From a virus, in IMG/VR virus record IMGVR_UViG_3300022674_000045, positions 1 through 64,000 of that record: 64,000 bases of DNA; one strand, given 5' to 3'. Numbering within the stretch: position 1 is the stretch's first letter; each line of letters starts with the position of its first letter. The notes below the pieces were generated by a model. It was not told where the DNA came from. It saw nothing but the letters and a program-made list of their open reading frames with translations, and did no database searches. A program made the translations under genes and the position numbers. Positions 24,471 through 64,000 of the stretch are shown one piece after another.

Positions 24471-25052
24471 TTAATTCCTTTCATCCAGGTTAAATGTTGC
24501 GCTGTTTATTTCAGCTTGATATTTTTGAACTCTGTTCATTGCTGTTAATGCTTCTTCATAAACTTCTTCTTGGAATAGCTGAACCACATTTATAATCAGA
24601 AAGCTTATTCTTTTCACTTGCTGACCACGGATATCATTACGATCCCCACTATTCCAATACTTTGCCCAAGACATAAATACATCTTTGTCCATATCACGTC
24701 TCATTGGGTTATCAACTGTTTTTAATATTAACCCCAATTCCTGAAACAGTTGTAAAACAAAGAAACATATATTTGGATTTATTAATGCATTATTCATTGA
24801 GCAAAACACAGGAGCATTTTTGATTCCCTCTATGAATATATTGGCTTGTGTAATATTCATATTTTTTACTTGATATATACCGATTTGTTCTCTCATATGT
24901 AGATGACTCTGAAGATCGAAATCTTGGGGAATAGCAACAAACTCGGCCATTACATAGTTATCAACAAGTGTATTTAATCTTCTTTCATCACGACGACTGG
25001 GATATTTTTCAGTGGTGGCTGATTCTAATATAGGGCAGTCTCCCCCAGTCAT
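24471..25052 (-). CDS. Hypothetical protein
   Basis: 193 residues if started at the ATG at 25052. The open frame extends to 25127, but that start would overlap the upstream gene by over 100 bases, and the first confidently protein-like segment is LNTLVDNYVMAEFVAIPQDFD, so the true start may be as late as 24950. The body is helical with several Met and Gln residues (FFVLQLFQELGLILK, ISFLIINVVQLFQEEVYEE). No family is recognised. It lies one base before the CreA-like start. Confidence 0.45.
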   Translation of the reverse strand: MTGGDCPILESATTEKYPSRRDERRLNTLVDNYVMAEFVAIPQDFDLQSHLHMREQIGIYQVKNMNITQANIFIEGIKNAPVFCSMNNALINPNICFFVLQLFQELGLILKTVDNPMRRDMDKDVFMSWAKYWNSGDRNDIRGQQVKRISFLIINVVQLFQEEVYEEALTAMNRVQKYQAEINSATFNLDERN

Positions 25053-25518
25053 TTCGGTGTTCAAGGTCAGCAAAGACCCCACCATCTTCGTCACCGTATT
25101 CAAAATTGTAGACATAACATCCCTCATATTGTGTTAGGTATTTGATTGCTTTTTCCAGAGCATATTGCTCTTTCATCAGATCATTTTCTAACCACCTTTG
25201 TGCCTGCCATTGTTTATTATTTTTAAAGTCTTCTTTAGAGACTTCATGTTTTTCACAAAACCCATCTTCGCTTCTCCATGAATCAATTTCTGGAATATAA
25301 TCATGCTTCAATTTATCTGCCAAACGATTAACAGCTTCTTTGGAGTTTGGGTTTGCTTTATATGGTCTTTGCTCAACAGAATCTCTTGTAATAATATTAA
25401 TAAAATCTTCTCTCCGTATAAATGCTCGAACCTCTTTATCGGACTTGATTTTTCTTGGCCAAAAGACAATAAATGAAGAAGAACTTGAATTTGTTACAAA
25501 ATCAGTTTTTATCTTCAT
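25009..25518 (-). CDS. FVTNSSS-leader protein 1
   Basis: 169 residues with a GGGAGG site. The first 18 residues (MKIKTDFVTNSSSSSFIV) match the next gene's N-terminus nearly position for position, while the rest is unrelated. The body is acidic and aromatic, with YEGCYVYNFEYGDEDGGVFADLEHRNDWG near the C-terminus. The FVTNSSSSSF start is a recurrent N-terminal motif that I know from otherwise dissimilar bacterial and phage proteins, where its role is unexplained. It is encoded beside a radical SAM enzyme; see findings. It overlaps the upstream stop by four bases. Confidence 0.6.
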   Translation of the reverse strand: MKIKTDFVTNSSSSSFIVFWPRKIKSDKEVRAFIRREDFINIITRDSVEQRPYKANPNSKEAVNRLADKLKHDYIPEIDSWRSEDGFCEKHEVSKEDFKNNKQWQAQRWLENDLMKEQYALEKAIKYLTQYEGCYVYNFEYGDEDGGVFADLEHRNDWGRLPYIRISHH

Positions 25519-51089: not shown

Positions 51090-51343
51090 AGGACTAAATC
51101 CTTTGGATCAAAATATTGTGGGTCTACTGGCTTTTCTTCTTCAACTTTCTTTTCAATTTTTACATCACCAACAATACCTTCTTTTGCTCGTAATTTATCA
51201 ACCTGTTCGTTTATTGATTTAACTCTTGCTTTTATTTCTTCGAGTCTTGATCTTGGACCTGCTGGTTGCCAGTCATAAGAAAATGATGAAGTATCTGATG
51301 AAGAAGAAGCATAATCGTAATAGTAATCACTCAACATTGTCAT
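51086..51343 (-). CDS. Small coiled-coil protein
   Basis: 85 residues. A Tyr/Ser-rich N-terminus (SDYYYDYASSSSDTSSFSYDW) leads into a charged coiled coil (RLEEIKARVKSINEQVDKLRAKEG) and a short acidic tail. It overlaps the RNA polymerase beta stop by ATGA, so it is translationally coupled to it. Not recognised; a polymerase accessory role is only a guess from position. Confidence 0.55.
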   Translation of the reverse strand: MTMLSDYYYDYASSSSDTSSFSYDWQPAGPRSRLEEIKARVKSINEQVDKLRAKEGIVGDVKIEKKVEEEKPVDPQYFDPKDLVL

Positions 51344-54300
51344 TTGTGATCAACTCCTATCACTGTGAGATATGAGTTCAATAGCTTTACTGATTCTGGC
51401 ATTGTATCAAGTTCTTTTGTATCATCCAGAAGATTTTGCTCAATGAACCCCCTGATATAACTATTTTTCAAATCAATACAATCTGATTTGGTTGTTAAGA
51501 ACTCAAATAAATTGCATGGAGCATCATGACCGATCAAACATGCGGTTTCCATTTCACCACATCTCTGACCGCCCTTATTCTTTCTGCCACCCAATGGTTG
51601 AAGCGTTCTTCGTGCATATGCTCCAATACCACGAGCGGCCAATTTCTCTTCTGCAATATGAACCATTCTAAAGAAATAAATATAACCAACAGCAATTTCA
51701 TTTATAATTTCTGCTGCTGACAATGGGTCATATAATTTTTGTTTGAAATCTGTCCCTGTATATTCTAATGCCTTTTTAACATCTTCTAAACATGATGATT
51801 CAAATGGAGGCTGTATGATTGATAAATCTTTAATGAAAGAAACTGTAATCTTTTCTGGCATTTGTTGTTCAAACTGATTGTAATACCATCCACCATTTGT
51901 TTTGTCAATAATTTTTATGTAATTCAAGAGATACTTTTTAATATCACTTTGTTTTTCTTTTGCATTTAACATCTTTAGCATATTGATTTTCAAATCTTGA
52001 ACTGACATGGCCATATGCAATTCATAAAGCTGGCCAATGTTCATTCTTGAAATGATACCCAATGGGTTGATACAAATATCAAGATGTCGTCCGTCTTTTA
52101 ACTTTGGCATTTTTTCATGGGGAACTATTCTTGAAATGACACCTTTGTTACCATGTCTATTCGCCATTTTATCACCAACCTGAACTTTACGGAAATGAAC
52201 ACCATACATCTCAATTTTTATTCCTGCAATTTTTTCTCTTTTAAACTTGTATTTTCCAACATATGAAAATTTATCAAGATTGTTTTCTCGAATTATCTTC
52301 AATGCTTCATTTTTCTCAAACGTATCTTTAATGATTTTTTGAAGATATTTCTCTTTCATTTGTTGTTTGGATATTCTCTTTTCAACCCATTCTTGAAATT
52401 GTGGAATTTCATTATTCCATTCATTTGCAAATAAGTTCACTTCTGAAATGATAAAATTCCTTTTTGCTTCCAGAGTAATTGGTTCCGAGAATACTGAATA
52501 TTGATCTTCGGAATTTAACTTTTTAATTATTGCATATGGGTCGCCTCGATTTATTCTTTCGAGTTCGTCTGGAAGTGGTTTGTATTCGTCTTTTTCTAAT
52601 GATAATAAAACTTTATCTGGAGTTAATGTAAATGATAAATCTTCATAATGAACAGATGTTAAAACATCTTCATCAACCAATCTTTTTGAAATTACAATTC
52701 CATCTTCATAATTGTTTCCATAATAGACCATGACACCAGTTAATAAATTTTTACCAATGTTAATTTTTCCATCAAAACAAAAATTGCTTTCAGCAAGAAT
52801 ATCCCCAGCTTTAAACTTATCTCCTGGTTGGACATAAATATTCATTACATCCATATGTTCGACATATATTTTTCTATATGCAACATTGAAAATATCTGGT
52901 TGACCATCTGAATACATTACTATAATATATTCTTTATCAATGTGAACTACCTCTCCATCTTTTTTTGCTTTTTTAACAAACTGTGTCTGATCAGAATACA
53001 ATCCTTCACATCCTGAAGCAATCAATGGTGGATCAAAATTCTTTAACATGATTGATTGGCGCATTTGTGAGGATGCCATTTGTAATCTTGTTTGATCATC
53101 ATGTTTTAAGAACGGCGTCATTGATACAGGAATTGATAATGGTTGCTTTTCACATATCTCCCTTGTAAACCGAAGATCTTCATCTACTTTAACATTGGGT
53201 ATTAGGTTTTGTAGAACTCCACAATTATCACGATCAGGAGTATCTACTGGGCATATACGACCAAACATTGTTGGGCATATATCTCTTAAATGGCTTGGTA
53301 TGTTTTCTCTTTTAAAACCACCAGGCCCCAACAGGCTAATTCTTGAAAGCTTTGTTAATTCTTCAACTGGATTAATAGAAAAATCAAATTGAACTATATC
53401 AGAAACATTACACTCCGATAAGATTTGTGTGGTATTTGTACTAAATTTTGGTTGTCTTGCTGTCCGGTTTGAAAAACATAAATCGAATATTATCTTTGAA
53501 ACTTTTGCACCAACCATATATTCAAAACATCTAATTCTTTTATTTGTAAATAATGTATCATCGACAAATCCTTCCTCAATAATATAAAGGATTTCATCTA
53601 ACAATGTATCTTTGAAGAAGAATTTTCTGCTTATTGGATCAACTTTTGGAATTAAATCAATAGCATATAAAATATCTTCGCCTTTGGATTTTGCATTATA
53701 TTTTGAATACTTTCTTCCAAGTTCAGAAACAAAATCGTCTTGAGTATAACCTCTTGAATTATCCATTATATCGTCAAGGTCAGCTCTTAAAATTTCATAT
53801 AAATTTTCTGACTTGAGATCAATTGGTGCTGATAAATTGAACTTGCTTTTTATTTCATCAGCTGTATAATAAGCGCATAATACATTTACTAATGAGATTT
53901 TCTTACCAAGAAAACTCATTTTAACAAACGGTCTTTCACGAGTGTCAAGAAACAACATAATTGTTGCAACATTTGTCCGAATCTTAATATTCTCACCTCT
54001 TGTTACAACCGGAATATCAAATAATTGAAATAGAGGAACTTTTCTTCTTCCATTGATGATAACATAATTGTTGTCAATCAACTTCGGAATGAAAATGCTC
54101 AAATCAATATTTGCACTTCCTTTTTGAAGTTTGATTGCTAATGTTTGCTTGACTGTTTTTGATAATTCGCCAGATGAAAATCTGGAATCTTTTAAATCTA
54201 ATTCTGTAATTGTAAATCCAATTTCTTGTACTGGAGCAACTATTTCTCGGACTAACGGTAAAATTTGGTCATAGTCTTTTCTTCTCATTGTGAAGATGTT

Positions 54301-54345
54301 ATTAGCTTCGTCTTGAAGCTTAAAAGTAGGATTAATTATGTCCAA
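51340..54345 (-). CDS. rpoB-like: RNA polymerase beta-like subunit
   Basis: 1001 residues, shorter than bacterial RpoB (about 1340). Start is TTG at 54345 with GGGAGG eight bases upstream. Signatures: GPGGFKRENIPSHLRDICPTMFGRICPVDTPD (fork and rifampicin region), KVQVGDKMANRHGNKGVISRIVPHEKMP (about residue 720) and the C-terminal clamp GGQRCGEMETACLIGHDAPCNL. With the beta'-like gene it should form a phage two-subunit core polymerase, unlike the split subunits of phiKZ. No alpha, omega or sigma homologue is visible here, so partners must come from elsewhere or be unnecessary. Confidence 0.95.
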   Translation of the reverse strand: MDIINPTFKLQDEANNIFTMRRKDYDQILPLVREIVAPVQEIGFTITELDLKDSRFSSGELSKTVKQTLAIKLQKGSANIDLSIFIPKLIDNNYVIINGRRKVPLFQLFDIPVVTRGENIKIRTNVATIMLFLDTRERPFVKMSFLGKKISLVNVLCAYYTADEIKSKFNLSAPIDLKSENLYEILRADLDDIMDNSRGYTQDDFVSELGRKYSKYNAKSKGEDILYAIDLIPKVDPISRKFFFKDTLLDEILYIIEEGFVDDTLFTNKRIRCFEYMVGAKVSKIIFDLCFSNRTARQPKFSTNTTQILSECNVSDIVQFDFSINPVEELTKLSRISLLGPGGFKRENIPSHLRDICPTMFGRICPVDTPDRDNCGVLQNLIPNVKVDEDLRFTREICEKQPLSIPVSMTPFLKHDDQTRLQMASSQMRQSIMLKNFDPPLIASGCEGLYSDQTQFVKKAKKDGEVVHIDKEYIIVMYSDGQPDIFNVAYRKIYVEHMDVMNIYVQPGDKFKAGDILAESNFCFDGKINIGKNLLTGVMVYYGNNYEDGIVISKRLVDEDVLTSVHYEDLSFTLTPDKVLLSLEKDEYKPLPDELERINRGDPYAIIKKLNSEDQYSVFSEPITLEAKRNFIISEVNLFANEWNNEIPQFQEWVEKRISKQQMKEKYLQKIIKDTFEKNEALKIIRENNLDKFSYVGKYKFKREKIAGIKIEMYGVHFRKVQVGDKMANRHGNKGVISRIVPHEKMPKLKDGRHLDICINPLGIISRMNIGQLYELHMAMSVQDLKINMLKMLNAKEKQSDIKKYLLNYIKIIDKTNGGWYYNQFEQQMPEKITVSFIKDLSIIQPPFESSCLEDVKKALEYTGTDFKQKLYDPLSAAEIINEIAVGYIYFFRMVHIAEEKLAARGIGAYARRTLQPLGGRKNKGGQRCGEMETACLIGHDAPCNLFEFLTTKSDCIDLKNSYIRGFIEQNLLDDTKELDTMPESVKLLNSYLTVIGVDHK

Positions 54346-54358
54346 GATTTAAACCTCC

Positions 54359-54544
54359 CTATTCTTTATATTCTTTTTGGTACTCATTCAAACATTTTTC
54401 TAACTTGTCATCCTCAACATAGTAAGGATCTTGATTCATATTTAAAGTGTTCATTATAAGTTGCGTTAGACGGAGATCCGGGTTTGCTACCCAGATCTCA
54501 CGAATACGCTCTAAAATTCTATTAATTCTTTTCGGGTCTCTCAC
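54359..54544 (-). CDS. Small protein between RNA polymerase genes
   Basis: 61 residues, starting with GTG overlapping the beta' stop (GTGA). It is helical and charged: NRILERIREIWVANPDLRLTQLIMNTLNMN then YVEDDKLEKCLNEYQKEYKE. No family is recognised. Its conserved-looking position between the two core subunits suggests an assembly or omega-like role, which is speculation. A GGGAGG site for the beta gene follows it. Confidence 0.55.
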   Translation of the reverse strand: MRDPKRINRILERIREIWVANPDLRLTQLIMNTLNMNQDPYYVEDDKLEKCLNEYQKEYKE

Positions 54545-57261
54545 GTTATCTTTTCTCCCTTGAGAATCTTATCCATAACTCCAGAATATCTTCCTTCATA
54601 TAAGATTCCCTGTAATATTGATCTCTTTGGATTTGAGAAAGCCATTGCTAATATCCAGCTTTCTTGGTTTGGTACAGATTGAATGCTGTAATAATCGGGT
54701 TCAACTACAGCCCTATCATCTTTCAACCGCCACTTTCTGTAATTTTTCCACATAAGCTGTGCAACAACACATTCAAAATGTACATGGTATATATCTTTAT
54801 CATATACTGCAAATAAATCATGAACTATGTCTGTATATGTTTTTCCCCTAAATTTGTGTAGTAACTGTGCGACTGATGATAGATCACCAATGATGTCTTT
54901 TTGTCTTACCGTTGGATCATTTGGATCACTTGGCTCACCTTGTTCGCCTTTGATAACAGCAGATCCAGATGTATGGAATGTTCGCAGAACCAATTGAGTT
55001 CCTCTTTCACCAAGGGTTTGTGCTGCAATAATTCCTATAAATCTACTGTTCAAACTTTTGTATAAATCTCCGTAACATGTTTTGCATATTTTTGGATTTT
55101 TACAAAGTATCGGACTTCTAATTTCAATTAGTTTTCCGACCAATTGTTTGTAATTATTTTTTGTTATTAATTGAAGACCATCATTTTCTTTGTAATATCT
55201 GTTAACCAACATTCTTGCTTTTCGTTCTGAATTAACATCGACTTGTAAAAAGTCATCAGTTCCACAATCATCTAATTGATCATCAATCTGTAAATTAGCA
55301 CATGTAAAAATTAATTTTCTTGAAAGATAACCAGATGTTCCTGTATTCAATGCAACATCAAGAAGACCCTTTCTACAACCATATGTTGAAAAGAAAAACT
55401 CTTCTGGGGTCAATCCTTCGATTAAGGAATGTTTAATTGGGGTTGGTAAAATTTCCCCATCAAAATTTGAAATGAAACCACGACTTAAAATTAATTGTTT
55501 AACCTGATCCCAAGTACCTCTTGCGCCTGACTCAATCATATATGCATATTTAAAATGATCTTTCAATTCATTAATCATTTTATCATCTGAAAGAGCTGTT
55601 AACTGTTCTCTAAGATCGCCTTTTGAAAAAACTTCATCTCTTATCTCTTGTGCTCTATCAAGAGAAAAATCATCTAACGACATTGTACAACCATATAATG
55701 TTGCATATTTGAATCCAATTTTCTTTACATTGTCCAAGATTTGAATTACTTGTTCTGGTGGATATTTATCTTTAACATTATTCAATATTTCCATCAGTCT
55801 TCCTTTTGCAATTATTCCTGTTACTAAAGGATAATCTTCAGGAAGTTGATTATTAAATTCTGCTTCTCCCCATGGAATTTGTTTTCCCTTGCATGTTAAT
55901 TTCTCTTTTGATTCATTAAATATCGGGGATGTTAAATAATAAATTCCGAGAATAACATCTTGGCTTGGAGTTGTTGTAAGAGTTTCATTTGCTGGGCTAC
56001 TTAAATTTTTCACAATAGAAATTTTTGCTATAACTTCTTCTTTTGCTTCACTTGTAATTGGGACATAAACTGCCATTTGATCTCCATCGAAATCTGCATT
56101 GAATGGCGGGCATACTAATGGATGAATCTTAATAACATGATCGGTTGTTAATTTAATTTTAAATGCAAGCATCCCTAATTTATGAAGCGATGGTTGTCGG
56201 TTTAATACACAATATTCATTTGTAATAACTGTTTCGCAAACTCTATAAAGAATCAAATTATCTTTATCAATACATTCATCTACAAAATCAATTGCTTTAT
56301 TCAACAACTTAAATTTTCCCAACTCAATAATTCTTTTAGCTATTGGTAATTTAAATATTTCTAATATCATCAAATATGGTAATTTACATTCATCCAACGC
56401 TAATGTTGGGTCAGGAGTAATAACGGCTCTACCAGAGAAATCAATTCTTTTACCAAGAATATTTCCACGAATCAATCCCTCTTTCTTTGCCATTTTTTCT
56501 AAAATCCTTGTGTACAACTCATTGACATCTTTCTGTAATTGTTTGAAATATGTATAATACACGGCTTTATCTCTGTGAATATCAATAATTGTATCTTTCA
56601 TTATTTCTTTTTTCGTTAATATCTGGACATAATATCTATTTATTTTGTCCATTAATTGTTTGGCTTCTCCTGAGCTTTTTGATGTTGGTCTTAAATCTGG
56701 TGGGAGAACTATAATTTGATCAATTAACAAATTATCAATATTCTCCATTACAGTTTCCCATTCCTTTACATTATCAGCTAAAGCATCTTCAGCATATGTT
56801 TTGACCAACTGTAGAATTGCATCTGTTCGCTCCCACCTTTGTGCATCAATGGGGATTGTATCTTCATTCATCGTAACAACAAATTCTTCGTCTGTCATAT
56901 AAAGAACGCTTTTGTCATTACGCATTAAATCATCCAATGCTTTTTTGAAATTCTTTCCTGCAATATCAACTAACAAATCATAAAACAATGGATTTACAAC
57001 TTTAATTGGAATTGTGATTTTAGCAAATCTTTTTCTTCGTTCATCACTGTTAACTATGTCCACGCCACATTCTTTACATTGCCCGCCGACTTTTGAAACA
57101 CCATGATATTTTCCACATTGACATGTATAATTTCTCACGGGTCCAAAAATTTGCTCAGAGAATAATCCTTCAGAATGAAATTTTCTTTTTCCGAATGTTT
57201 TTAGAGACGTTACTTCGTCTAGGTTTTCACAAAAAGATGCGTAATCTAAAATCTTTGGCAT
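54541..57261 (-). CDS. rpoC-like: RNA polymerase beta'-like subunit
   Basis: 906 residues versus about 1400 in E. coli RpoC. Cys47, Cys49, Cys62 and Cys65 (CQCGKYHGVSKVGGQCKEC) form the N-terminal zinc-binding domain. ILGKRIDFSGRAVITPDP is the lid/rudder region and FNADFDGDQMAVYVP (about residue 387) is the catalytic triad of Asp that binds Mg2+. AAQTLGERGTQLVLRTFHTSG is the trigger-helix/bridge region. The large beta'-specific inserts of bacteria are missing. All catalytic residues are present, so the enzyme should be active. Confidence 0.95.
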   Translation of the reverse strand: MPKILDYASFCENLDEVTSLKTFGKRKFHSEGLFSEQIFGPVRNYTCQCGKYHGVSKVGGQCKECGVDIVNSDERRKRFAKITIPIKVVNPLFYDLLVDIAGKNFKKALDDLMRNDKSVLYMTDEEFVVTMNEDTIPIDAQRWERTDAILQLVKTYAEDALADNVKEWETVMENIDNLLIDQIIVLPPDLRPTSKSSGEAKQLMDKINRYYVQILTKKEIMKDTIIDIHRDKAVYYTYFKQLQKDVNELYTRILEKMAKKEGLIRGNILGKRIDFSGRAVITPDPTLALDECKLPYLMILEIFKLPIAKRIIELGKFKLLNKAIDFVDECIDKDNLILYRVCETVITNEYCVLNRQPSLHKLGMLAFKIKLTTDHVIKIHPLVCPPFNADFDGDQMAVYVPITSEAKEEVIAKISIVKNLSSPANETLTTTPSQDVILGIYYLTSPIFNESKEKLTCKGKQIPWGEAEFNNQLPEDYPLVTGIIAKGRLMEILNNVKDKYPPEQVIQILDNVKKIGFKYATLYGCTMSLDDFSLDRAQEIRDEVFSKGDLREQLTALSDDKMINELKDHFKYAYMIESGARGTWDQVKQLILSRGFISNFDGEILPTPIKHSLIEGLTPEEFFFSTYGCRKGLLDVALNTGTSGYLSRKLIFTCANLQIDDQLDDCGTDDFLQVDVNSERKARMLVNRYYKENDGLQLITKNNYKQLVGKLIEIRSPILCKNPKICKTCYGDLYKSLNSRFIGIIAAQTLGERGTQLVLRTFHTSGSAVIKGEQGEPSDPNDPTVRQKDIIGDLSSVAQLLHKFRGKTYTDIVHDLFAVYDKDIYHVHFECVVAQLMWKNYRKWRLKDDRAVVEPDYYSIQSVPNQESWILAMAFSNPKRSILQGILYEGRYSGVMDKILKGEKIT

Positions 57262-57266
57262 GTGTT

Positions 57267-57521
57267 TTATTCTCCTATGGTTCCAAATTTATTAACAAGA
57301 AATTCACCTATTTCATAGAAATGTTGTTTCACCTTGTCTGAAATAATTCGATCTAAGTCTGGCATCAATTCTCGAGCCACAATTCTTATATCATCAATTG
57401 CAAGGTCTATTAATCTTTCTCGTAGAGCTTTATCAATAAGTTTAACAATTTCTTGTTCGAGCATTGAATGTTGTTCTTCTTCCATAATGTCTTTAGGAAA
57501 TAATATCTTTTTCTCTATCAT
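57267..57521 (-). CDS. Small helical protein
   Basis: 84 residues with an AGGAAAAGGGAA site, almost entirely helical and Glu/Ile rich (EEEQHSMLEQEIVKLIDKALRERLIDLAIDDIRIVARE). It overlaps the upstream small gene by 29 bases and lies five bases before the beta' start. No family is recognised. Confidence 0.5.
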   Translation of the reverse strand: MIEKKILFPKDIMEEEQHSMLEQEIVKLIDKALRERLIDLAIDDIRIVARELMPDLDRIISDKVKQHFYEIGEFLVNKFGTIGE

Positions 57522-57726
57522 TACATTTCCCTTTTCCTGATATTTTCTCTTTTGCTTTTATTGCATATTTGTCTGCAACATCAGAGAAAACATCTTTTGT
57601 TCGCTCTACAAGAGCATCAAATATATCTCTTGAAGCAGATTTTACTGCTTTTGTTAATTCATCAACAACCCCACAAGCTTTCTCTGTGAGTTGTTCATCC
57701 GTTAGTCTCTTATTGTCGTTTGCCAT
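57493..57726 (-). CDS. Small helical protein
   Basis: 77 residues with a TAGGAGC site. Charged helix throughout (LTEKACGVVDELTKAVKSASRDIFDALVERTKDVFSDVADKYAIKAKEKI). It overlaps the E2-like gene by 25 bases, so it is part of the same operon. The function is unknown. Confidence 0.5.
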   Translation of the reverse strand: MANDNKRLTDEQLTEKACGVVDELTKAVKSASRDIFDALVERTKDVFSDVADKYAIKAKEKISGKGKCNDREKDIIS

Positions 57727-58070
57727 GCTCCTATCACCTCTTGTTTCCTGTATTCTATTTCATCCCAAGGTGTAAAGTAACAATCATCTAAATTAAAGCA
57801 ACATAGCATCGTTGAAATCATCTTCAATGTATTTTCGTTTAATTCTAACTCCCTTAATTTATTTGGAATACAAAATTCACCTGTACCTGGATCAGCATTT
57901 GGATGTGGATTATTTAAAAATATATTATCTATTTTTCCATCTACTGTTTGAATTTTATATCCGCGAATAACAAACTTTGGATCTAATTTTAATATTTCAT
58001 GAATTTGATTTCTAAAAATTAACTTGTAAGGAGTATGAACATTTCTGATTGTTTCAGTTTTTATGTTCAT
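57702..58070 (-). CDS. Putative E2-like (UBC-fold) protein
   Basis: 122 residues with an AGGAGCTGCA site. NNPHPNADPGTGEFCIPNKL carries an HPN tripeptide (residues 56-58) and Cys67 after a short gap, the order of E2 conjugating enzymes in which HPN precedes the catalytic Cys. A Trp follows (PWDEIEY, Trp102) with CCFNLDDCYF between, similar to the downstream E2 loop. The protein is short, as are several prokaryotic E2 families. It is coupled by TAATG to an E1-like gene and followed by an operon containing a Ubl and a JAB peptidase. I infer thioester transfer of the Ubl; the family match is by motif only. Confidence 0.55.
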   Translation of the reverse strand: MNIKTETIRNVHTPYKLIFRNQIHEILKLDPKFVIRGYKIQTVDGKIDNIFLNNPHPNADPGTGEFCIPNKLRELELNENTLKMISTMLCCFNLDDCYFTPWDEIEYRKQEVIGAWQTTIRD

Positions 58071-58930
58071 TATGCAGCTCCTGTTTCAGGTATCAATTCA
58101 ATAAAATATTTTCCATCCGTTTGATTTAAGGCAACCACAAAATTGTTAAATTGACATTGGGTTGCAACGGCTCTCGATAGATTGATTATTATATCCCCAC
58201 TTGTTCTTAAGGAATTTTTTGGGATTGAAAACTCTGACATTGGGAATAAACTACTCCCAACAAACACATCTACATCAGCTTGTTTATTTGCTTGTAGAAT
58301 TGGAACTATTTTTTCCGGAAGGTTAACAAATTTTTCTTCATTATCCGGATCTTCATATACAATATCATATGAGCAACTGTCAAGATGTTTTACATGATCC
58401 AACTCATATTTTTGAATAGATTGATCTTTTATGAGTTTTGAAATTGTATCATTATAGACCAACATTAATATTAGACTAGCTGCGTATCTCAAATCTTCTT
58501 TTGTTAATTCTGTTAGATACTTGCCCTCTGATTTGACTCTATACTCAACATTTTTTCTACAATCCACCATAAGATATCTTGAAGAAATATAAAGTCTTGC
58601 ACTGATTTCTTTTAATCTGTCATATGTGAAATCTCTGCAATCCAAAACTAAATCACATTTTGGGATTTTAGTTTTTCCTTCAATATATTTCTCATTAAAA
58701 CTGATTATTGTAACATCAGGATTTTTACGAGAAATAATTTCATCTAGGGCGTCTGTCTTTTTCAAACCAACATCAATCTGTCGATATATGGAGTTTTTGA
58801 GGTTTTTTGATTCAACTGTATCGTGGTCTATAACTATTAGAGTTTCAAGAGTTTCAAGATTCGAAACAGCGTTGGCAACAAACCCTCCAAGGGTTCCAAT
58901 GCCAATTACTGCGATTGATTTATATACCAC
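58070..58930 (-). CDS. ThiF/E1-like adenylyltransferase 1
   Basis: 286 residues, start GTG at 58930 with AGGGAGAA upstream. IAVIGIGTLGG (residues 7-16) is the nucleotide-binding loop. The acidic strand IVIDHDTVESKNL, Arg50, Lys57-Lys58 and LVLDCRDF (Asp97) are the expected ATP and Mg2+ contacts of E1/ThiF/MoeB enzymes. These adenylate the C-terminal Gly of ubiquitin-like proteins. A candidate active Cys lies in HLDSCSYD. The C-terminal 90 residues are an extra domain. It overlaps the E2-like start, so the two are probably a working pair. Confidence 0.8.
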   Translation of the reverse strand: MVYKSIAVIGIGTLGGFVANAVSNLETLETLIVIDHDTVESKNLKNSIYRQIDVGLKKTDALDEIISRKNPDVTIISFNEKYIEGKTKIPKCDLVLDCRDFTYDRLKEISARLYISSRYLMVDCRKNVEYRVKSEGKYLTELTKEDLRYAASLILMLVYNDTISKLIKDQSIQKYELDHVKHLDSCSYDIVYEDPDNEEKFVNLPEKIVPILQANKQADVDVFVGSSLFPMSEFSIPKNSLRTSGDIIINLSRAVATQCQFNNFVVALNQTDGKYFIELIPETGAA

Positions 58931-58941
58931 GTCTCAATATT

Positions 58942-58990
58942 CTCCCTTTCTTAGTTCCTTGGTATGGAGAATTTAATCCCCATACCAAGG
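58942..58990. other. Long hairpin between unknown gene and E1 gene
   Basis: CCTTGGTATGG pairs with CCATACCAAGG around an 11-base loop. No T-run follows in either direction. It lies between the stop of the 193-residue gene and the E1 ribosome-binding site, and might modulate E1/E2 expression relative to upstream genes. Confidence 0.45.
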
Positions 58991-58997
58991 GAATGTT

Positions 58998-59579
58998 TTA
59001 TGCTACAATATCTTGCAATTCTATTAGTTCAAAATCTTTTTTCTTACTATAAGTTCTGACAAACTCAATCTCTGTCGGACCAACAGGTTCTGGTCTGTAT
59101 TGAGCTTTATATTTAAAATTTTTGTTCGCTATTTCAACAGGGTATGACAACGGTATTTCATATAAATATTTCTTTATATATTTATTACCTTCAAGCATCT
59201 GCATTTGTATGGGAGTATTTGGGTCAATTGCCCTAAGCTCAGATACAATTGTTTGTCTAAAAATTGCATCATCTCGCTCATTTCTTATTTTCATCTCCCT
59301 CTTTACAAACTCATCTTGACGGCCTTTACCATTTATTTTATAGAAATTTTCTTTTCGTTTAAGGGATTTAATAGCACGTCCAAAAGATTTGTTTTTCCCC
59401 TTTAAAATATTGAATGAATCTAATAGCGAACAGATTGAAATTCCTCTTGCTTCAATCCTACCTGCTTCAGAATTGAATAACAAACATACTGTCATTGCAT
59501 TGCTCATGATTGGAGTTTTTACATTATAGAAATTAATTCTATCAACTCCATGTATATCCAAGAAATTTTTATTTAACAT
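58998..59579 (-). CDS. Hypothetical protein within the Ubl cluster
   Basis: 193 residues with an AAAGGGG site. NAMTVCLLFNSEAGRIEARGISICSLLDSFNILKGKNKSFGRAIKSLKRK is similar to a segment I know from uncharacterised phage proteins with ARGIxICSxxDxFN...GRAxKAL. The rest is basic and helical, with DPNTPIQMQMLEGNKYIKKYLYEIP. It lies between the Ubl gene and E1 gene 1, so a role in the pathway or as substrate is possible. No catalytic motif is visible. Confidence 0.5.
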   Translation of the reverse strand: MLNKNFLDIHGVDRINFYNVKTPIMSNAMTVCLLFNSEAGRIEARGISICSLLDSFNILKGKNKSFGRAIKSLKRKENFYKINGKGRQDEFVKREMKIRNERDDAIFRQTIVSELRAIDPNTPIQMQMLEGNKYIKKYLYEIPLSYPVEIANKNFKYKAQYRPEPVGPTEIEFVRTYSKKKDFELIELQDIVA

Positions 59580-59598
59580 GCTAATACCCCTTTGTTTG

Positions 59599-59619
59599 TG
59601 GGGGTCCGAAGACCCCCCA
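59599..59619 (-). other. C(UUCG)G hairpin after the Ubl gene
   Basis: On the minus strand GGGGGTC-TTCG-GACCCCC, seven or eight G/C-rich pairs closed by the very stable C(UUCG)G tetraloop. No T-run follows. It is 14 bases after the Ubl stop and 20 before the next ATG. Such a hairpin could protect the 3' end of an upstream mRNA segment or dampen downstream expression. Confidence 0.6.
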
Positions 59620-59633
59620 TATTCAACTCTATA

Positions 59634-60113
59634 CTAGCAACCCTTTTTGCCTGCGGGTTTCAGGAACTCAAGGTTGTCACCTTGCTTCAACACATAATCA
59701 CCGCCAACGTCTTTGCCGCTGACCAGACCGGTGGAAAGTTTGTCCACGTTCAGGACTTCCCGAAGGAACTCGCCCACCTGTTTCACACTACGACCCACGA
59801 CTGGGAAGTTACCGGAAGAGGCACCGCATGAAACATGAATGGTTGTGGTTGTGCGGCTTCCAAATTCACCGCTTGGTTTGGTGATAACGCTGCGACCTGT
59901 AAATTCAACACCAGCAATAGCACCAGTGCCTGTAGCAGGAGCCGCTTTGGTGATACTAACGGCCGAACGACCGAACTGACTAAGGATGGACGCAATCACG
60001 TCTTCCTTCGGACGTTTGGTGACTCCAACAATACCCAACTCATCGACACACATACGTTTCAACTCTTTAGAGGTCTTCGCTTCCAATTCTTCTCTGGTAA
60101 AGTATGTACCCAT
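59634..60113 (-). CDS. Ubiquitin-like modifier with SAP-like N-terminus
   Basis: 159 residues from the ATG at 60113, preceded by AAAAAGGAG; a GTG seven codons upstream overlaps that site. Residues about 5-48 (FTREELEAKTSKELKRMCVDELG...KEDVIASILSQF) look like a SAP/HeH helix-extended-loop-helix nucleic acid-binding motif. Residues about 88-152 (TTTIHVSC, VKQVGEFLREVLNV, VSGKDVGGDYVLKQGDNLEFL) fit a beta-grasp ThiS/MoaD-like fold. The tail KPAGKKGC ends in Gly-Cys, not Gly-Gly; removal of the Cys would expose Gly. The gene is notably G+C-richer than its neighbours. It lies between two E1-like genes. Confidence 0.65.
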   Translation of the reverse strand: MGTYFTREELEAKTSKELKRMCVDELGIVGVTKRPKEDVIASILSQFGRSAVSITKAAPATGTGAIAGVEFTGRSVITKPSGEFGSRTTTTIHVSCGASSGNFPVVGRSVKQVGEFLREVLNVDKLSTGLVSGKDVGGDYVLKQGDNLEFLKPAGKKGC

Positions 60114-60134
60114 GTTACAATTCTCCTTTTTCAC

Positions 60135-60818
60135 TTAGTTGATTGCTCTAATTTTAGAGCTTGCGTTCATTGACAGAATATCAAAATAGATTTCTGATCT
60201 TTCATAGGACTCTTTAACTACTGCGTTATAAAAAGTCCAACACATGATTGTTGCGACCCCCAAATTTGTAAAATATAGCTGGGGGTCAGAGTTAGCTAAT
60301 TCTTCACATGACATCTCATTTGGTAACTTGTCGGTTGGATTTGCAATCTCAGGATGGTATCTGCACAAATCAGGTGTAAGGTCTTTTCCTTCCTTACGAA
60401 CATACAATTGTACATTTCCATCAGTAAATTCATTTCCTCCGGAGATCAAAACAACATTTTTTAATTCTTTACAATAATTCCCTACTATCATCCGGGTCTT
60501 ATGATTGTCAACGCCCATAAACACAATATCGCCTTCTAGAATAACTTCCGAAATGTTTTCCGGAGTTACATATTCTTCAAAGGCCTCCAACCTCAATTTA
60601 GGATACTTCATCTGGAGCTCACCGGCTTTAATATCAGCTTTATTCCCGAGTCTAACAAACTCTTGTCTTTCATAATTTTTTGCTTCGTATTTGTCTCCAT
60701 CTACAAGCAAGATATCAGCTGATAAATCATTTGAATAATTTAGAAATCGGCACAATCTTTCTATAAGGATTGAACCGACCCCGCCGAGCCCTATCACAAC
60801 AATACCCATTTTATTCAT
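60135..60818 (-). CDS. ThiF/E1-like adenylyltransferase 2
   Basis: 227 residues with a GGAGAAGTAACA site. GIVVIGLGGVGS (residues 5-16), LLVDGDKYEAKNYERQEF (Asp40, Asn48, Arg51), Lys60/Lys64 and MGVDNHKTR (Asp104) are the E1/ThiF nucleotide and Mg2+ sites. PNEMSCEELANSDPQLYFTNLGVATIM places Cys171 where E1/ThiF enzymes have the catalytic Cys, and matches the layout of PRTRC-type ThiF proteins. It should adenylate the Ubl encoded immediately downstream. It overlaps nothing and lies two bases after the JAB gene. Confidence 0.85.
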   Translation of the reverse strand: MNKMGIVVIGLGGVGSILIERLCRFLNYSNDLSADILLVDGDKYEAKNYERQEFVRLGNKADIKAGELQMKYPKLRLEAFEEYVTPENISEVILEGDIVFMGVDNHKTRMIVGNYCKELKNVVLISGGNEFTDGNVQLYVRKEGKDLTPDLCRYHPEIANPTDKLPNEMSCEELANSDPQLYFTNLGVATIMCWTFYNAVVKESYERSEIYFDILSMNASSKIRAIN

Positions 60819-60820
60819 TG

Positions 60821-62500
60821 TTACTTCTCCTTCCCAAACACACGTTTAAACATTGCAAATAATGTATCTTCCCGTTTTTGAGCAGAGGGTGGTTCCGGGA
60901 TTGGTTTGCTTGCTCCATTTGGTTCAGGAATTCTTTCAATAGTCTGATCGGATTTTATCGCCTCTTGAAGAGCTACACGATTAATCTCTTCAGTTTCCGC
61001 TGATAAATATTCACCTGAGTCAGTTCTACTCTGTTCAATCAGTTGTGCTTCTTGTGAATAGCAGGCACTTCCCCCACGTATTTCATCCGGTGGGCTGTCG
61101 ATCAGTGAATAACAGAACGGGCATTGTTTCTCATCAGCAAAACGATGAAAACTATTTCCGCAAGATGGACATGTAATAAAAGCTGATGGTGGTCTATAAC
61201 CATCTTCTGGTTTAAGTGGTGAATCGTCTTCCTTGGTGTAATGATTTGGAAGTTCATCTTCATTTACTAAACTCAAATATTCATCGGTTTTACAATTTGG
61301 ACATACTGGCAACATAAGAGCGTCTGTATTATCCACGACGATTTGTTTACATTTATCACATTTATAAACTTCTGTTTCGTCAAAGTCGTCCTCTGATTGT
61401 TCTGCCAGGAATTTATGACCTCTGAATACACATGTCTTGCAGGGAAAGAACTCATCGTCTGCGCCATCGAATACCACATCATGTTTTGGAAACTCAATAG
61501 GTTTAACTTTTACGCCCACATTAAATGGACTGGCTGCTCTATTATCCATTCCTGGAAGTGGCAGCTGTTTTTGAGTTGGAGTTGTTCTGGCAGGAGCTGT
61601 ATATCTTCCTGCTTGGTTCCACAATGAGGCATCGAAATTTCGACCCCATCCTGGACTCTGACTTCTATGTTGACCATAAACTCCATACCCATAGTTGTAT
61701 CCGTAATTATTATATTGATATTGATATGTGCCTTTTTCAACCATTCCCATCCACTCGGATGGAACTTTATGATACTTTTCGGATACATTAACCACATAGC
61801 GTTTGTCATATCTTCTATAAGAATATGAAAACTGATTGGTTGCTTCTTTAACTTCTTCCATCTTGCCATTGATCCATCTATAGACACGTCTGGTTGGCCT
61901 CTGCTCCACTTCATCAATGTCTTTTGTTTTGATCAATCGCTCTACATAGTCTTCTGGTTCGACAACAAATCTATGACCATTGGCAACAATTGAAGCTGTA
62001 ATGCTAACCTCATCGTTATTGACATTACCAACGGTGATATGTAATCCATCAAAATGTTCTTCATCTTTATCATCCGTTCCTGAATGAAATGCTGACATGC
62101 TGGCATGACTATGAATTGTGCCAACCATTGTCATTCCTTCTATGGTAATAGCTTTGTTATAATCACATGCTGCACCTGTCACTTTTTGATGCGGGGGAAC
62201 AATTTTATAAACTCTTTTTGTTTCATCATAAAATAAAAGGACAATTGATTCCCCATAATATTCTTTATATACCTCTCTGAAAAATGCAACAACTCTAGCA
62301 AATTGCCCGCCAGGAATCTTTTTAATGTTCATACGGGCCATCTTTTCAACACTCTCCAAAATGGAAATATTCTGAACTGGAGCGATACTTTCCATAATTC
62401 CCATTTTCTTCTTTAGAAAAATCCCCTCTTTCGCTACGATATAACATATATCATCATCCGGGATGGGGGAAGTCCCATCATTCACATGAATCTTGAACAT
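60821..62500 (-). CDS. JAMM/JAB peptidase with multiple zinc-ribbon CxxC pairs
   Basis: 559 residues from the ATG at 62500 (GAGGAG upstream); the frame extends to 62566 but that part overlaps its upstream neighbour. His130, His132, Ser140 and Asp143 (GTIHSHASMSAFHSGTDD) satisfy HxH(x7)Sx2D, with Glu84 as a candidate JAMM glutamate. JAB enzymes cleave isopeptide or C-terminal bonds of ubiquitin-like proteins. Residues about 290-305 are Tyr/Gly/Asn rich. Between about 353 and 463 there are five CxxC pairs (PCKTC, KCDKC, VCPNC, TCPSC, QCPFC). The likely roles are maturation of the Ubl tail and deconjugation. Confidence 0.85.
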   Translation of the reverse strand: MFKIHVNDGTSPIPDDDICYIVAKEGIFLKKKMGIMESIAPVQNISILESVEKMARMNIKKIPGGQFARVVAFFREVYKEYYGESIVLLFYDETKRVYKIVPPHQKVTGAACDYNKAITIEGMTMVGTIHSHASMSAFHSGTDDKDEEHFDGLHITVGNVNNDEVSITASIVANGHRFVVEPEDYVERLIKTKDIDEVEQRPTRRVYRWINGKMEEVKEATNQFSYSYRRYDKRYVVNVSEKYHKVPSEWMGMVEKGTYQYQYNNYGYNYGYGVYGQHRSQSPGWGRNFDASLWNQAGRYTAPARTTPTQKQLPLPGMDNRAASPFNVGVKVKPIEFPKHDVVFDGADDEFFPCKTCVFRGHKFLAEQSEDDFDETEVYKCDKCKQIVVDNTDALMLPVCPNCKTDEYLSLVNEDELPNHYTKEDDSPLKPEDGYRPPSAFITCPSCGNSFHRFADEKQCPFCYSLIDSPPDEIRGGSACYSQEAQLIEQSRTDSGEYLSAETEEINRVALQEAIKSDQTIERIPEPNGASKPIPEPPSAQKREDTLFAMFKRVFGKEK

Positions 62501-64000
62501 GAAGGAAACTCCTCTCTTCTTGTAAAAATTGAAGTTGTGATAATGAATTTTCAATAAACAATCCATGGAAATTAGGAAATGCCCATGTGGCTTCCATTTT
62601 AGATTGCTCTGTTGGACTTATTCTTGGATTTGGAATACAATCCAATACTGTGTGGTTCTTTACATAATTGTCTATTGTATATGTTTCTGGATACGATGTG
62701 TAATATCCAAGAGACATCATTCTTGGGGTTTTGCTTTCATTAGTTCTTATAACTAACCACCCAAATGAATTTTGATAATCCCCACCAACACCTGTTAAAA
62801 TATCACCAGGTTGTGGTTTAATCTTTGTAATGTCAATTGGAGCGTGGGCTAATGTTGCCCATTTTTTCGACTTCATCCCCACTCTTTTAAATTTCTCCAT
62901 CATATCACTATACCACAATGTACAACAATTTGAGCATAGAACTAATGGTTCATCTCCACCCGTATCTGTGATAAATCCAATAATAATATTTACATCTTTC
63001 TTTGGGAAATGTGGAATATAACCATGTTGTGCAATAATCTTAGTTCCAGCTGTAACTCTATCGAATTTGTTGGTTATCTTTCTAATTTTGCCAACACTTA
63101 TTATTGATGAACCTCTACTACCTGATATACCCTTCACATATTCAACTTGTGTTAAAGCTCCATCTTTATCACTTAACACAAAATTCAATGTGCCTTTAGC
63201 TTCATCTATCGTGAATGCTGTGATTGTTCTTACCATCAGCATATTAATTGGGTTATTCCAATCAGAAAATACGACCTTATCTCCAAGATCAAACCTAATG
63301 TTGAGATCAAAACTTTCAACTTCAAATGTAAGGCCATCATTTTTGATTAGATGTTCTGCTACTTGTTTAATATCGGGGGTTGATGTAGAGTGATTATTAT
63401 CATAAACAACTCCGCCTGGTGTTGCCCAACAATAACTCTCAACTCCAGCATGCCTCATATCAGTCTGAGATAATAACTTTCTCCCAACACGAAATACTTG
63501 TGGTAATGGTCTGATTTCATCTGCTGTAAATAATCTTCTTTGCTTTCGACCAAGCATTGACATTCTTCTAGATGAACTATCTCGTACCTGTAAATTATAT
63601 CGTTGATCTTGGGGTGAGTACGATTTGTCTGTTCCCACAAATGAAAATTTCAAAGTTCCATCTTCACGAACATCAAGACCAGTATATTGAGCATTACTTC
63701 CAGCATGATATGGCCCAGAGTTTACTGAACGGATAATAACGTAATTTTCTTCTTTGTTCAATATAATATTATCATATTTCGGAGTATCTAAATTAAAAAG
63801 TTCTCCTTCTGTATTTTCAAGAATATAAAATGAATTACCTATTCTTGCTTCCGTAACTCCATCTCTTGCATTTCTAATGAAATGAACTTTTCTGTAACTT
63901 GGATTTCCATACCCATCTTTGACGACTATAATATCGCCTTCTTTAATAACTGTCCCATTTTTCATTGTGCCTTGTTCATCATATCTTAATTTTTTGGCAC
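62478..64000 (-). CDS. Hypothetical protein (5' end outside window)
   Basis: At least 495 residues from the ATG at 63965; the frame remains open to the window edge with protein-like sequence (AKKLRYDEQGT) and no good ribosome-binding site at 63965, so the true start is probably beyond the window. The protein is beta rich: repeated KxGDIIVVKDGYGNP-like and LGDKVVFSDWNNP, KPQPGDILTGVGG segments, each with a Gly-Asp turn, resembling SH3-like or KOW-type barrels. LCSNCCTLWY holds a Cys cluster. It overlaps the JAB start by 23 bases and may be part of the Ubl pathway. Confidence 0.6.
   Translation of the reverse strand, partial: AKKLRYDEQGTMKNGTVIKEGDIIVVKDGYGNPSYRKVHFIRNARDGVTEARIGNSFYILENTEGELFNLDTPKYDNIILNKEENYVIIRSVNSGPYHAGSNAQYTGLDVREDGTLKFSFVGTDKSYSPQDQRYNLQVRDSSSRRMSMLGRKQRRLFTADEIRPLPQVFRVGRKLLSQTDMRHAGVESYCWATPGGVVYDNNHSTSTPDIKQVAEHLIKNDGLTFEVESFDLNIRFDLGDKVVFSDWNNPINMLMVRTITAFTIDEAKGTLNFVLSDKDGALTQVEYVKGISGSRGSSIISVGKIRKITNKFDRVTAGTKIIAQHGYIPHFPKKDVNIIIGFITDTGGDEPLVLCSNCCTLWYSDMMEKFKRVGMKSKKWATLAHAPIDITKIKPQPGDILTGVGGDYQNSFGWLVIRTNESKTPRMMSLGYYTSYPETYTIDNYVKNHTVLDCIPNPRISPTEQSKMEATWAFPNFHGLFIENSLSQLQFLQEERSFLHVQDSCE

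What the first reader, a model, noticed from the sequence alone, without database searches (positions are those of the whole stretch)
57702..62500. Phage-encoded ubiquitin-like conjugation cluster: E2-like, two E1s, Ubl, JAB
In one leftward operon the sequence shows a protein with HPN...Cys (E2-like), two ThiF/E1-like enzymes with intact nucleotide sites, a beta-grasp-like protein ending in GKKGC, and a JAMM peptidase with HxH(x7)Sx2D. Prokaryotic E1-E2-JAB clusters, including PRTRC and anti-phage Bil-type systems, are established; a full set inside a jumbo phage beside its own RNA polymerase, with two E1s and a SAP-like Ubl, is an arrangement I do not recognise. It may tag virion, host or polymerase proteins, or counter a host Ubl defence.
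Basis: partly seen in the sequence, partly recalled or inferred. Interest (0 to 1): 0.95.

Follow-up and report, generated by a model that had tools for sequence, protein, structure and literature searches.

The report
Phage ubiquitin-like tagging system beside RNA polymerase
A large group of uncultured, often giant, bacterial viruses carries, in the same operon as its own RNA polymerase, what looks like a complete ubiquitin-like protein-tagging machine whose tag carries a likely nucleic-acid-binding domain; no such viral system turned up in the literature held here, and its target is unknown.

Summary
Window 57702-62500 (minus strand) encodes JAB, E1a, a beta-grasp Ubl ending GKKG(C), E1b and an HPN...Cys E2-like protein, in one operon with RpoC and RpoB. 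Seven genes (JAB to RpoB) keep order and strand in 66 of 66 viral loci; sampled by RpoC instead, 58 of 61 loci with enough upstream DNA hold all six conjugation proteins. The core B-JAB-E1a-Ubl is a divergent PRTRC-type (Iyer operon 6d) set with chromosomal relatives in Methylomirabilota and CPR bacteria. New are the added E1b + HPN-type E2, the fixed link to RNA polymerase, and an N-terminal Rho_N/SAP-like domain on the Ubl: 72/72 RNAP-adjacent Ubls have it, against 1/17 others. E1b's NxxRQ motif is degenerate, so 'two E1s with intact sites' is half right. Most likely a covalent Ubl-conjugation system attaching a nucleic-acid-binding tag to phage transcription machinery: the chemistry is well supported by sequence, the target is inference. 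A plain PRTRC-like set also occurs in isolated Bacillus phage KLEB27-3.

The parts
62478..64000 (-). C-terminal part of the 878-aa B protein (whole gene 62478-65114 of the record; the 5' end lies beyond the window in L011). N-terminal ~270 aa = PRTRC_B/Prok-E2_D-like E2 domain with invariant N169 and C177; C-terminal ~600 aa unassigned.
   Evidence: hhalign to bacterial B 3.6e-27, to PRTRC_B 3.6e-10; C177 56/56; Prok-E2_D E 0.007-0.085, below cut-off, in 4 of 4 relatives
60821..62500 (-). JAB/JAMM peptidase (PRTRC_A-like), HxHx7Sx2D at 62113-62072, Zn-ribbon-like Cys motifs in the C-terminal half
   Evidence: TIGR03735 6.5e-12, below cut-off; hhalign to PRTRC_A 7.5e-22; ribosome-binding site
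60135..60818 (-). E1a, ThiF/PRTRC_ThiF-like adenylyltransferase; complete nucleotide site, invariant C171 (60306-60308) in the C-terminal region
   Evidence: (TIGR03736 4.7e-9, below cut-off)
59634..60113 (-). Ubl, 159 aa: N-terminal Rho_N/SAP-like domain (about 59973-60095), linker, C-terminal beta-grasp (about 59655-59852), tail GKKGC (59637-59651)
   Evidence: AlphaFold; Foldseek
58998..59579 (-). 193-aa protein of unknown function between Ubl and E1b, present in a subset of relatives
58070..58930 (-). E1b, ThiF-fold N-terminal half with degenerate NxxRQ motif, extra C-terminal region ending in conserved G-[AG]-A (PETGAA)
57702..58070 (-). Compact E2-like protein, 122 aa; HPN at 57897-57905, catalytic-type Cys67 at 57870-57872
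57493..57726 (-). 77-aa unknown, overlaps the E2 gene; found in nearer relatives only
57267..57521 (-). 84-aa unknown, found in most relatives just before RpoC
54541..57261 (-). RNA polymerase beta' (RpoC), unsplit, in the same operon; NADFDGD motif invariant
51340..54345 (-). RNA polymerase beta (RpoB), unsplit

Best explanation
The locus encodes a phage ubiquitin-like conjugation system built on a PRTRC-type core (B = E2-like domain, JAB, E1a, Ubl) plus an added E1b + HPN-type E2 pair, transcribed with the phage RNA polymerase. Proposed working: JAB trims the Ubl tail where needed (GKKG|C) and later removes conjugates; E1a adenylates the Ubl C-terminal Gly and forms a thioester, probably on C171; the Ubl passes to an E2 cysteine (C67 of the HPN protein, or C177 of B) and on to a lysine of the target. 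E1b, degenerate at NxxRQ and next to E2, most likely acts as the partner (inactive-type) adenylation subunit or as the E2 dock rather than as an independent E1. The Ubl carries a Rho_N/SAP-like domain, so conjugation would fix a nucleic-acid-binding module onto its target; because that domain and the whole cluster track the RNA polymerase operon, the likeliest target is the phage polymerase or proteins bound to it, as an assembly or switching control. Shown by sequence: the proteins, active-site conservation, operon and linkage. Inferred: the order of steps, E1b's role, nucleic-acid binding and the target.
For: Conserved active sites; order and strand fixed in 66/66 loci; unbiased RpoC sampling 58/61; purifying selection; homology of core parts to PRTRC_A/ThiF/B/C; Ubl beta-grasp model and Foldseek; E2 evidence; Rho_N domain in 72/72 RNAP-adjacent Ubls versus 1/17 others; bacterial chromosomal relatives with the same core order B-JAB-E1a-Ubl.
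Against: No biochemistry. Foldseek TM for the E2 model is only 0.38. No E3 recognised. E1b may be inactive. Operon linkage to RNAP may reflect shared timing, not a shared target. The Rho_N-RNAP association comes from one phage clade, so the 72 cases are not independent. Nucleic-acid binding by this Rho_N-like domain is untested.
Confidence: 0.66

Rival explanations
1. Ubl conjugation is real but aimed at host or rival systems: the cluster counters host Ubl-based defence (JAB strips tags, E1/E2 decoys) or disables host proteins.
For: E1-E2-JAB modules are established antiphage systems (Bil, CBASS type II; PMC11354881 read, PMC10097602 found); E1b has weak-to-moderate PADLOC E1-E2 hits (6.9e-11).
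Against: Near-universal retention in one clade and a fixed place in the RNAP operon (58/61) is unlike the patchy accessory pattern of counter-defence genes; no CD-NTase, BilA or other defence component is seen; JAB has no PADLOC hit.
Confidence: 0.13
2. The system tags virion proteins (head, tail or virion RNAP) during assembly, as the mirror image of Bil tagging of tail fibres.
For: Tail assembly genes with Ubl and JAB domains are known in lambdoid phages (PMC1779556); the same record is a myovirus with sheath, baseplate, tape-measure and terminase genes and a second RNAP pair.
Against: The cluster is not linked to tail or capsid genes but to RpoC/RpoB; the JAB is PRTRC_A-like, not TAPK-like with NlpC/P60.
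Confidence: 0.12
3. The Ubl is a sulfur carrier (ThiS/MoaD/Urm1-like thiocarboxylate) for RNA or cofactor thiolation; the JAB only trims it.
For: E1a/E1b hit ThiF/MoeB families; the Ubl C-terminal domain resembles TGS, MoaD and TtuB as well as SUMO.
Against: Two E2-type proteins with invariant Cys; no rhodanese or sulfurtransferase recognised in the cluster.
Confidence: 0.07
4. The 122-residue protein is not an E2; the cluster is a plain PRTRC-like core using only the B protein, and HPN...C is coincidental.
For: Foldseek TM 0.38, E >= 0.05; no Pfam or NCBIfam hit.
Against: H, N and C invariant in 57-58 of 58 sequences that are otherwise only about 20% identical per column; the only PDB profile hits are E2s at that site; hhalign to canonical E2s E 2.9e-4, at least 90-fold better than every other family tried.
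Confidence: 0.08

Closest known systems
PRTRC system (Iyer et al. 2006 operon type 6d; NCBIfam TIGR03735/03736/03738, Pfam Prok-E2_D) of plasmids and mobile elements
   Same: JAB with N-terminal extension matched by PRTRC_A, ThiF-type E1, E2-like B protein with conserved Cys, small Ubl with a GxKG tail; gene order B-A-ThiF shared with pMOL28
   Different: All scores below PRTRC cut-offs; no ParB, PRTRC_E or PRTRC_F found in the cluster; B fused into an ~870-aa protein; Ubl with Rho_N domain; extra E1b and HPN-type E2; fixed beside RpoC/RpoB
Chromosomal B-JAB-E1a-Ubl operons of Methylomirabilota, Falkowbacteria, Parcubacteria (L094-L102)
   Same: Same four-protein core in the same order; E1a 47-51% identical; Ubl tails GEKG, GDKG or GRKG
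   Different: Short Ubl without Rho_N domain; no E1b/E2; no RNAP; Methylomirabilota add an AAA ATPase
Bacterial double-module island (KSB1 L104, Ignavibacteriae L103, Deltaproteobacteria L107)
   Same: Both modules together: ThiF + HPN..C E2-like protein, and Ubl-B-JAB-E1a
   Different: Adds a second Ubl-like small protein, a second JAB in L104 and a proteasomal-type AAA ATPase; direct homology of its E1/E2 to phage E1b/E2 is only weak
Bacillus phage vB_BauM_KLEB27-3 gp194-gp199
   Same: Isolated 217-kb phage with ThiF, PRTRC_A, Prok-E2_D-like and PRTRC_C proteins
   Different: No E1b, no HPN E2, no adjacent RNAP, four PRTRC_C-like stretches; E1a only 32% identical
Bil (BilABCD) and CBASS Cap2/Cap3
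   Same: E1, E2, JAB chemistry
   Different: BilA has two Ubl domains, BilB an E2 with a CEHH motif (PMC11354881); no CD-NTase here; this is phage-borne

Membership tests
PRTRC system / Iyer 6d | JAB with N-terminal alpha+beta extension (PRTRC_A) | tested here: met
   TIGR03735 over model 29-187, 6.5e-12 though below cut-off 101.8 bits; hhalign 7.5e-22
PRTRC system / Iyer 6d | ThiF-type E1 of the PRTRC subfamily | tested here: met
   TIGR03736 4.7e-9, below cut-off; hhalign 2.3e-35; in the tree a sister group of PRTRC ThiF
PRTRC system / Iyer 6d | Small Ubl with conserved C-terminal Gly (PRTRC_C) | tested here: met
   Beta-grasp model; GxKG tail; hhalign with PRTRC_C E 7.4e-5, probability 62%: moderate
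PRTRC system / Iyer 6d | E2-like PRTRC_B/Prok-E2_D with conserved Cys | tested here: met
   hhalign 3.6e-10 to PRTRC_B, C177 56/56; Prok-E2_D sub-threshold in 4/4 relatives
PRTRC system / Iyer 6d | Absolutely conserved His downstream of the E2 Cys | tested here: not met
   No conserved His at residues 178-239 of the B family; W201 and N206 conserved instead
PRTRC system / Iyer 6d | Associated ParB, PRTRC_E, PRTRC_F / alpha-helical protein | tested here: not met
   No such Pfam or NCBIfam hit among the cluster proteins; C-terminal part of B unassigned
PRTRC system / Iyer 6d | Scores above the curated family cut-offs | tested here: not met
   45.4 vs 101.8 and 35.9 vs 144.75 bits; Prok-E2_D 13.0-16.6 vs 25
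Canonical (HPN) E2 / UBC | HPN motif and catalytic Cys about 10 residues later | tested here: met
   H 58/58, N 57/58, C 58/58; spacing 11 against 10 in many eukaryotic E2s
Canonical (HPN) E2 / UBC | UBC fold | tested here: inconclusive
   Model pLDDT 92.8 with five-strand sheet then helix, no N-terminal helix; 9 of top 10 PDB matches are E2s but TM 0.31-0.39, E >= 0.05
Bil (BilABCD) | BilA with two Ubl domains; BilB with CEHH motif | tested here: not met
   One beta-grasp domain plus Rho_N; E2 has HPN..C; definition from PMC11354881
CBASS type II (Cap2/Cap3) | CD-NTase in the operon; E2-E1 fusion | tested here: not met
   No CD-NTase among cluster proteins and E1/E2 are separate
Any Ubl-conjugation system | Isopeptide-linked Ubl on target proteins | not testable with these tools
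   Needs biochemistry or mass spectrometry

The most novel reading that the evidence does not exclude
A virus-encoded, two-branch Ubl cascade in which a heterodimeric E1 (E1a active, E1b degenerate) and two different E2s covalently attach a nucleic-acid-binding (Rho_N/SAP) ubiquitin-like protein to the viral multisubunit RNA polymerase, in effect building or switching a polymerase subunit by conjugation, with E1b's conserved G-A-A tail possibly serving as a second modifier.
Probability: 0.22. Interest if true: 0.95.

Novelty: new variant of a known kind. Interest (0 to 1): 0.82.

Why it matters
Prokaryotic ubiquitin-like conjugation is known mainly from plasmids, islands and antiphage defence. 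Here a complete set is an apparent core feature of a large clade of uncultured phages, kept in the operon of their RNA polymerase. If it works as inferred, it would be a viral post-translational modification system used by the phage itself, a first hint of what PRTRC-type systems do, and a direct test of whether a compact HPN-type E2 outside eukaryotes and archaea is active. It would also give a reason to look for Ubl control of phage transcription. Two reviews of jumbo phages (PMC7824862 on 224 genomes, PMC13282480 of 2026) do not describe it.

Tried and rejected
Single-sequence Pfam, NCBIfam and PHROGs searches for the E2 and Ubl gave nothing decisive. L061's apparent Ubl-E1b fusion was rejected: the Ubl end is frameshifted and reads into E1b. 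The idea that E1b's C-terminal region is a second beta-grasp was tested by hhalign and not supported (E 0.04-0.10, no better than an unrelated control at 0.068); only the conserved GAA tail remains. I first read E1b's motif as a clean Arg-to-Asn change; the motif is one residue shorter, so an alternative register puts K/R at position 45 in 37 of 63 rows, and 'inactive' is not proven. Homology of the phage HPN E2 to the bacterial HPN E2-like proteins was weak (hhalign E 0.026), and E1b did not join bacterial E1b in the tree (long branches), so common origin of the two-module arrangement is open. BFVD fold search for the E2 found no viral relative. JAB profile against PDB found no JAB. Single-sequence RpoC scan found only 4 loci; the alignment scan replaced it. 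Several paper searches gave nothing on phage-encoded Ubl systems; subscription papers are not held, so this is not proof of novelty.
Full report
Observation. The window's minus strand encodes, in transcription order, JAB (62500-60821), E1a (60818-60135), Ubl (60113-59634), a 193-aa unknown (59579-58998), E1b (58930-58070), E2-like (58070-57702), two small proteins, RpoC (57261-54541), a 61-aa protein and RpoB (54345-51340), nearly without gaps. Pfam supports ThiF for both E1s, Prok-JAB for the JAB, Rho_N (E 0.0011) and a weak TGS (0.08) for the Ubl, and complete RNAP subunits. The record is a 101,627-base viral fragment of a contractile-tailed phage: sheath, baseplate wedge, tape measure and terminase.

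Conservation. A single-sequence scan found 9 viral relatives and an alignment scan 78 loci. JAB, E1a, Ubl, E1b, E2, RpoC and RpoB occur together in 66 loci, all in the same order and strand. To avoid sampling by the cluster itself, I sampled by RpoC: of 61 loci with at least 6.5 kb upstream, 58 have all six conjugation proteins and the other three have part of the set, some perhaps diverged. Full-set contigs reach 203-312 kb. Window versus L002 shows purifying selection in every gene, dN/dS about 0.05-0.23, with synonymous sites near or at saturation in most genes.

Active sites. E1a: GxGGxG, D40, N48, R51, Q52, K60, D104 and C171 essentially invariant in 70 sequences. JAB: E106, H152, H154, S162, D165 invariant in ungapped rows. 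E2: H56 and C67 in 58/58, N58 in 57/58. Ubl: ends in K-G in 67/68, with one further Cys in 21, which would need trimming. E1b keeps the glycine loop, D35, D37, N43, K58 and a DCRD motif matching MoeB's DCTD, but its NxxRQ region is one residue shorter and lacks a conserved Arg. It ends in a conserved G-[AG]-A.

A missed member. The protein upstream of JAB runs out of the window (62478-65114, 878 aa). Its first ~270 residues match a bacterial B family (hhalign 3.6e-27) and PRTRC_B (3.6e-10), aligned at the cysteine; N169 and C177 are invariant in 56/56. Prok-E2_D appears below threshold in 4 of 4 relatives tested. So the phages encode two E2-type domains.

Folds. AlphaFold gives a confident E2 model (pLDDT 92.8) with a strand meander, the HPN-Cys segment and a helix. 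Foldseek ranks E2s in 9 of the top 10, but TM is only 0.31-0.39 and E at best 0.05. The sequence profile's only PDB hits are two E2s aligned at HPN...C (not significant alone), and hhalign with canonical E2s gives E 2.9e-4, far better than all controls. The Ubl model has a helical N-terminal domain, a disordered linker and a C-terminal beta-grasp; best matches are TGS, SUMO and other Ubl domains.

What it belongs to. JAB and E1a match PRTRC_A and PRTRC_ThiF below the curated cut-offs and clearly by hhalign. The Ubl, together with bacterial relatives, matches PRTRC_C moderately (7.4e-5), including the G-x-K-G tail. PRTRC corresponds to operon type 6d of Iyer et al. 2006 (PMC1779556): JAB with N-terminal domain, E1, Ubl ending in Gly, helical protein, E2-like with Cys and downstream His. 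The downstream His is absent here, as are ParB, E and F. In the tree, phage E1a and bacterial E1a form a group beside PRTRC ThiF. I therefore call the core PRTRC-type, a divergent relative, not a PRTRC system.

Cellular relatives. A scan of bacterial and archaeal genomes found 17 loci. Two (L092 and the short L093) are phage-like contigs binned with archaea. Methylomirabilota, Falkowbacteria and Parcubacteria carry B-JAB-E1a-Ubl in chromosomal surroundings. KSB1, Ignavibacteriae and Deltaproteobacteria carry a larger island with both a ThiF + HPN..C protein pair and the Ubl-B-JAB-E1a core, plus a proteasomal-type AAA ATPase. Two modules side by side are thus not unique to the phages, though direct descent is unproven.

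The telling feature. The Rho_N/SAP-like N-terminal domain is on all 72 RNAP-adjacent Ubls and on 1 of 17 others; the exception, L053, has otherwise the phage-type core. These are one clade and not independent, but the domain, the E1b-E2 pair and the polymerase operon go together.

Mechanism. Best reading: JAB trims and deconjugates; E1a activates the Ubl; an E2 cysteine carries it to a lysine; E1b is a partner subunit or E2 dock, as in heterodimeric E1s and in BilD, which pairs an inactive and an active adenylation domain (PMC11354881); the tag brings a nucleic-acid-binding domain to the transcription machinery. The chemistry is well supported, the target inferred.

Novelty. Jumbo-phage reviews read here do not mention such a system, and no annotated phage in the 50,697-record collection has a close E1a (best 32% identity, Bacillus phage KLEB27-3). 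That phage holds a plain PRTRC-like set, partly annotated, so phage carriage of such genes is not wholly new. I rate it a new variant of a known kind.

Noticed in passing
L011 2880-3245, 3245-3628, 7086-7550, 7541-7879, 7852-8193 (-); window 25009-25518 (-): Several small paralogues share an N-terminal M-[KR]-[IL]-K-x-DF[VI]TNSSS-x-x-[FY] signature; similar genes lie a few kb upstream of the Ubl cluster in about 30 relatives, and no held paper contains the string. Possibly a sorting, processing or conjugation signal.
   Followed up: partly
L012 4972-9057 and 9075-12089 (-), same record as the window: A second, unsplit RpoB/RpoC pair (1361 and 1004 aa): the phage has two multisubunit RNA polymerases, both with undivided subunits, unlike the split ones described for phiKZ-type phages (PMC7824862).
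   Followed up: partly
L104 211-8636 (KSB1), also L103, L107: Bacterial chromosomal island with two ubiquitin-like modules, an HPN..C E2-like protein and an AAA ATPase with proteasomal OB domains: looks like a bacterial Ubl system coupled to an unfoldase.
   Followed up: partly
L082 3718-9708 (Bacillus phage KLEB27-3): PRTRC_C-like protein with four matched stretches (poly-Ubl), Prok-E2_D-like, PRTRC_A-like and ThiF proteins in an isolated jumbo phage.
   Followed up: partly
window 58070-58930 (E1b C-terminus): Conserved C-terminal G-[AG]-A tail (PETGAA most common) in most of 68 sequences; function unexplained, reminiscent of a modifier tail.
   Followed up: partly
L012 15001-15924 (-): Protein whose start resembles a heptose-kinase (HldE/RfaE-type) domain, judged by eye; might bear on a Gram-negative host.
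   Followed up: no
L077 and L079 (contigs 177 kb and 459 kb): Virus-classed contigs with B-JAB-E1a-Ubl core but no E1b, E2 or RNAP nearby; their nature (phage or bacterial) is unclear.
   Followed up: no
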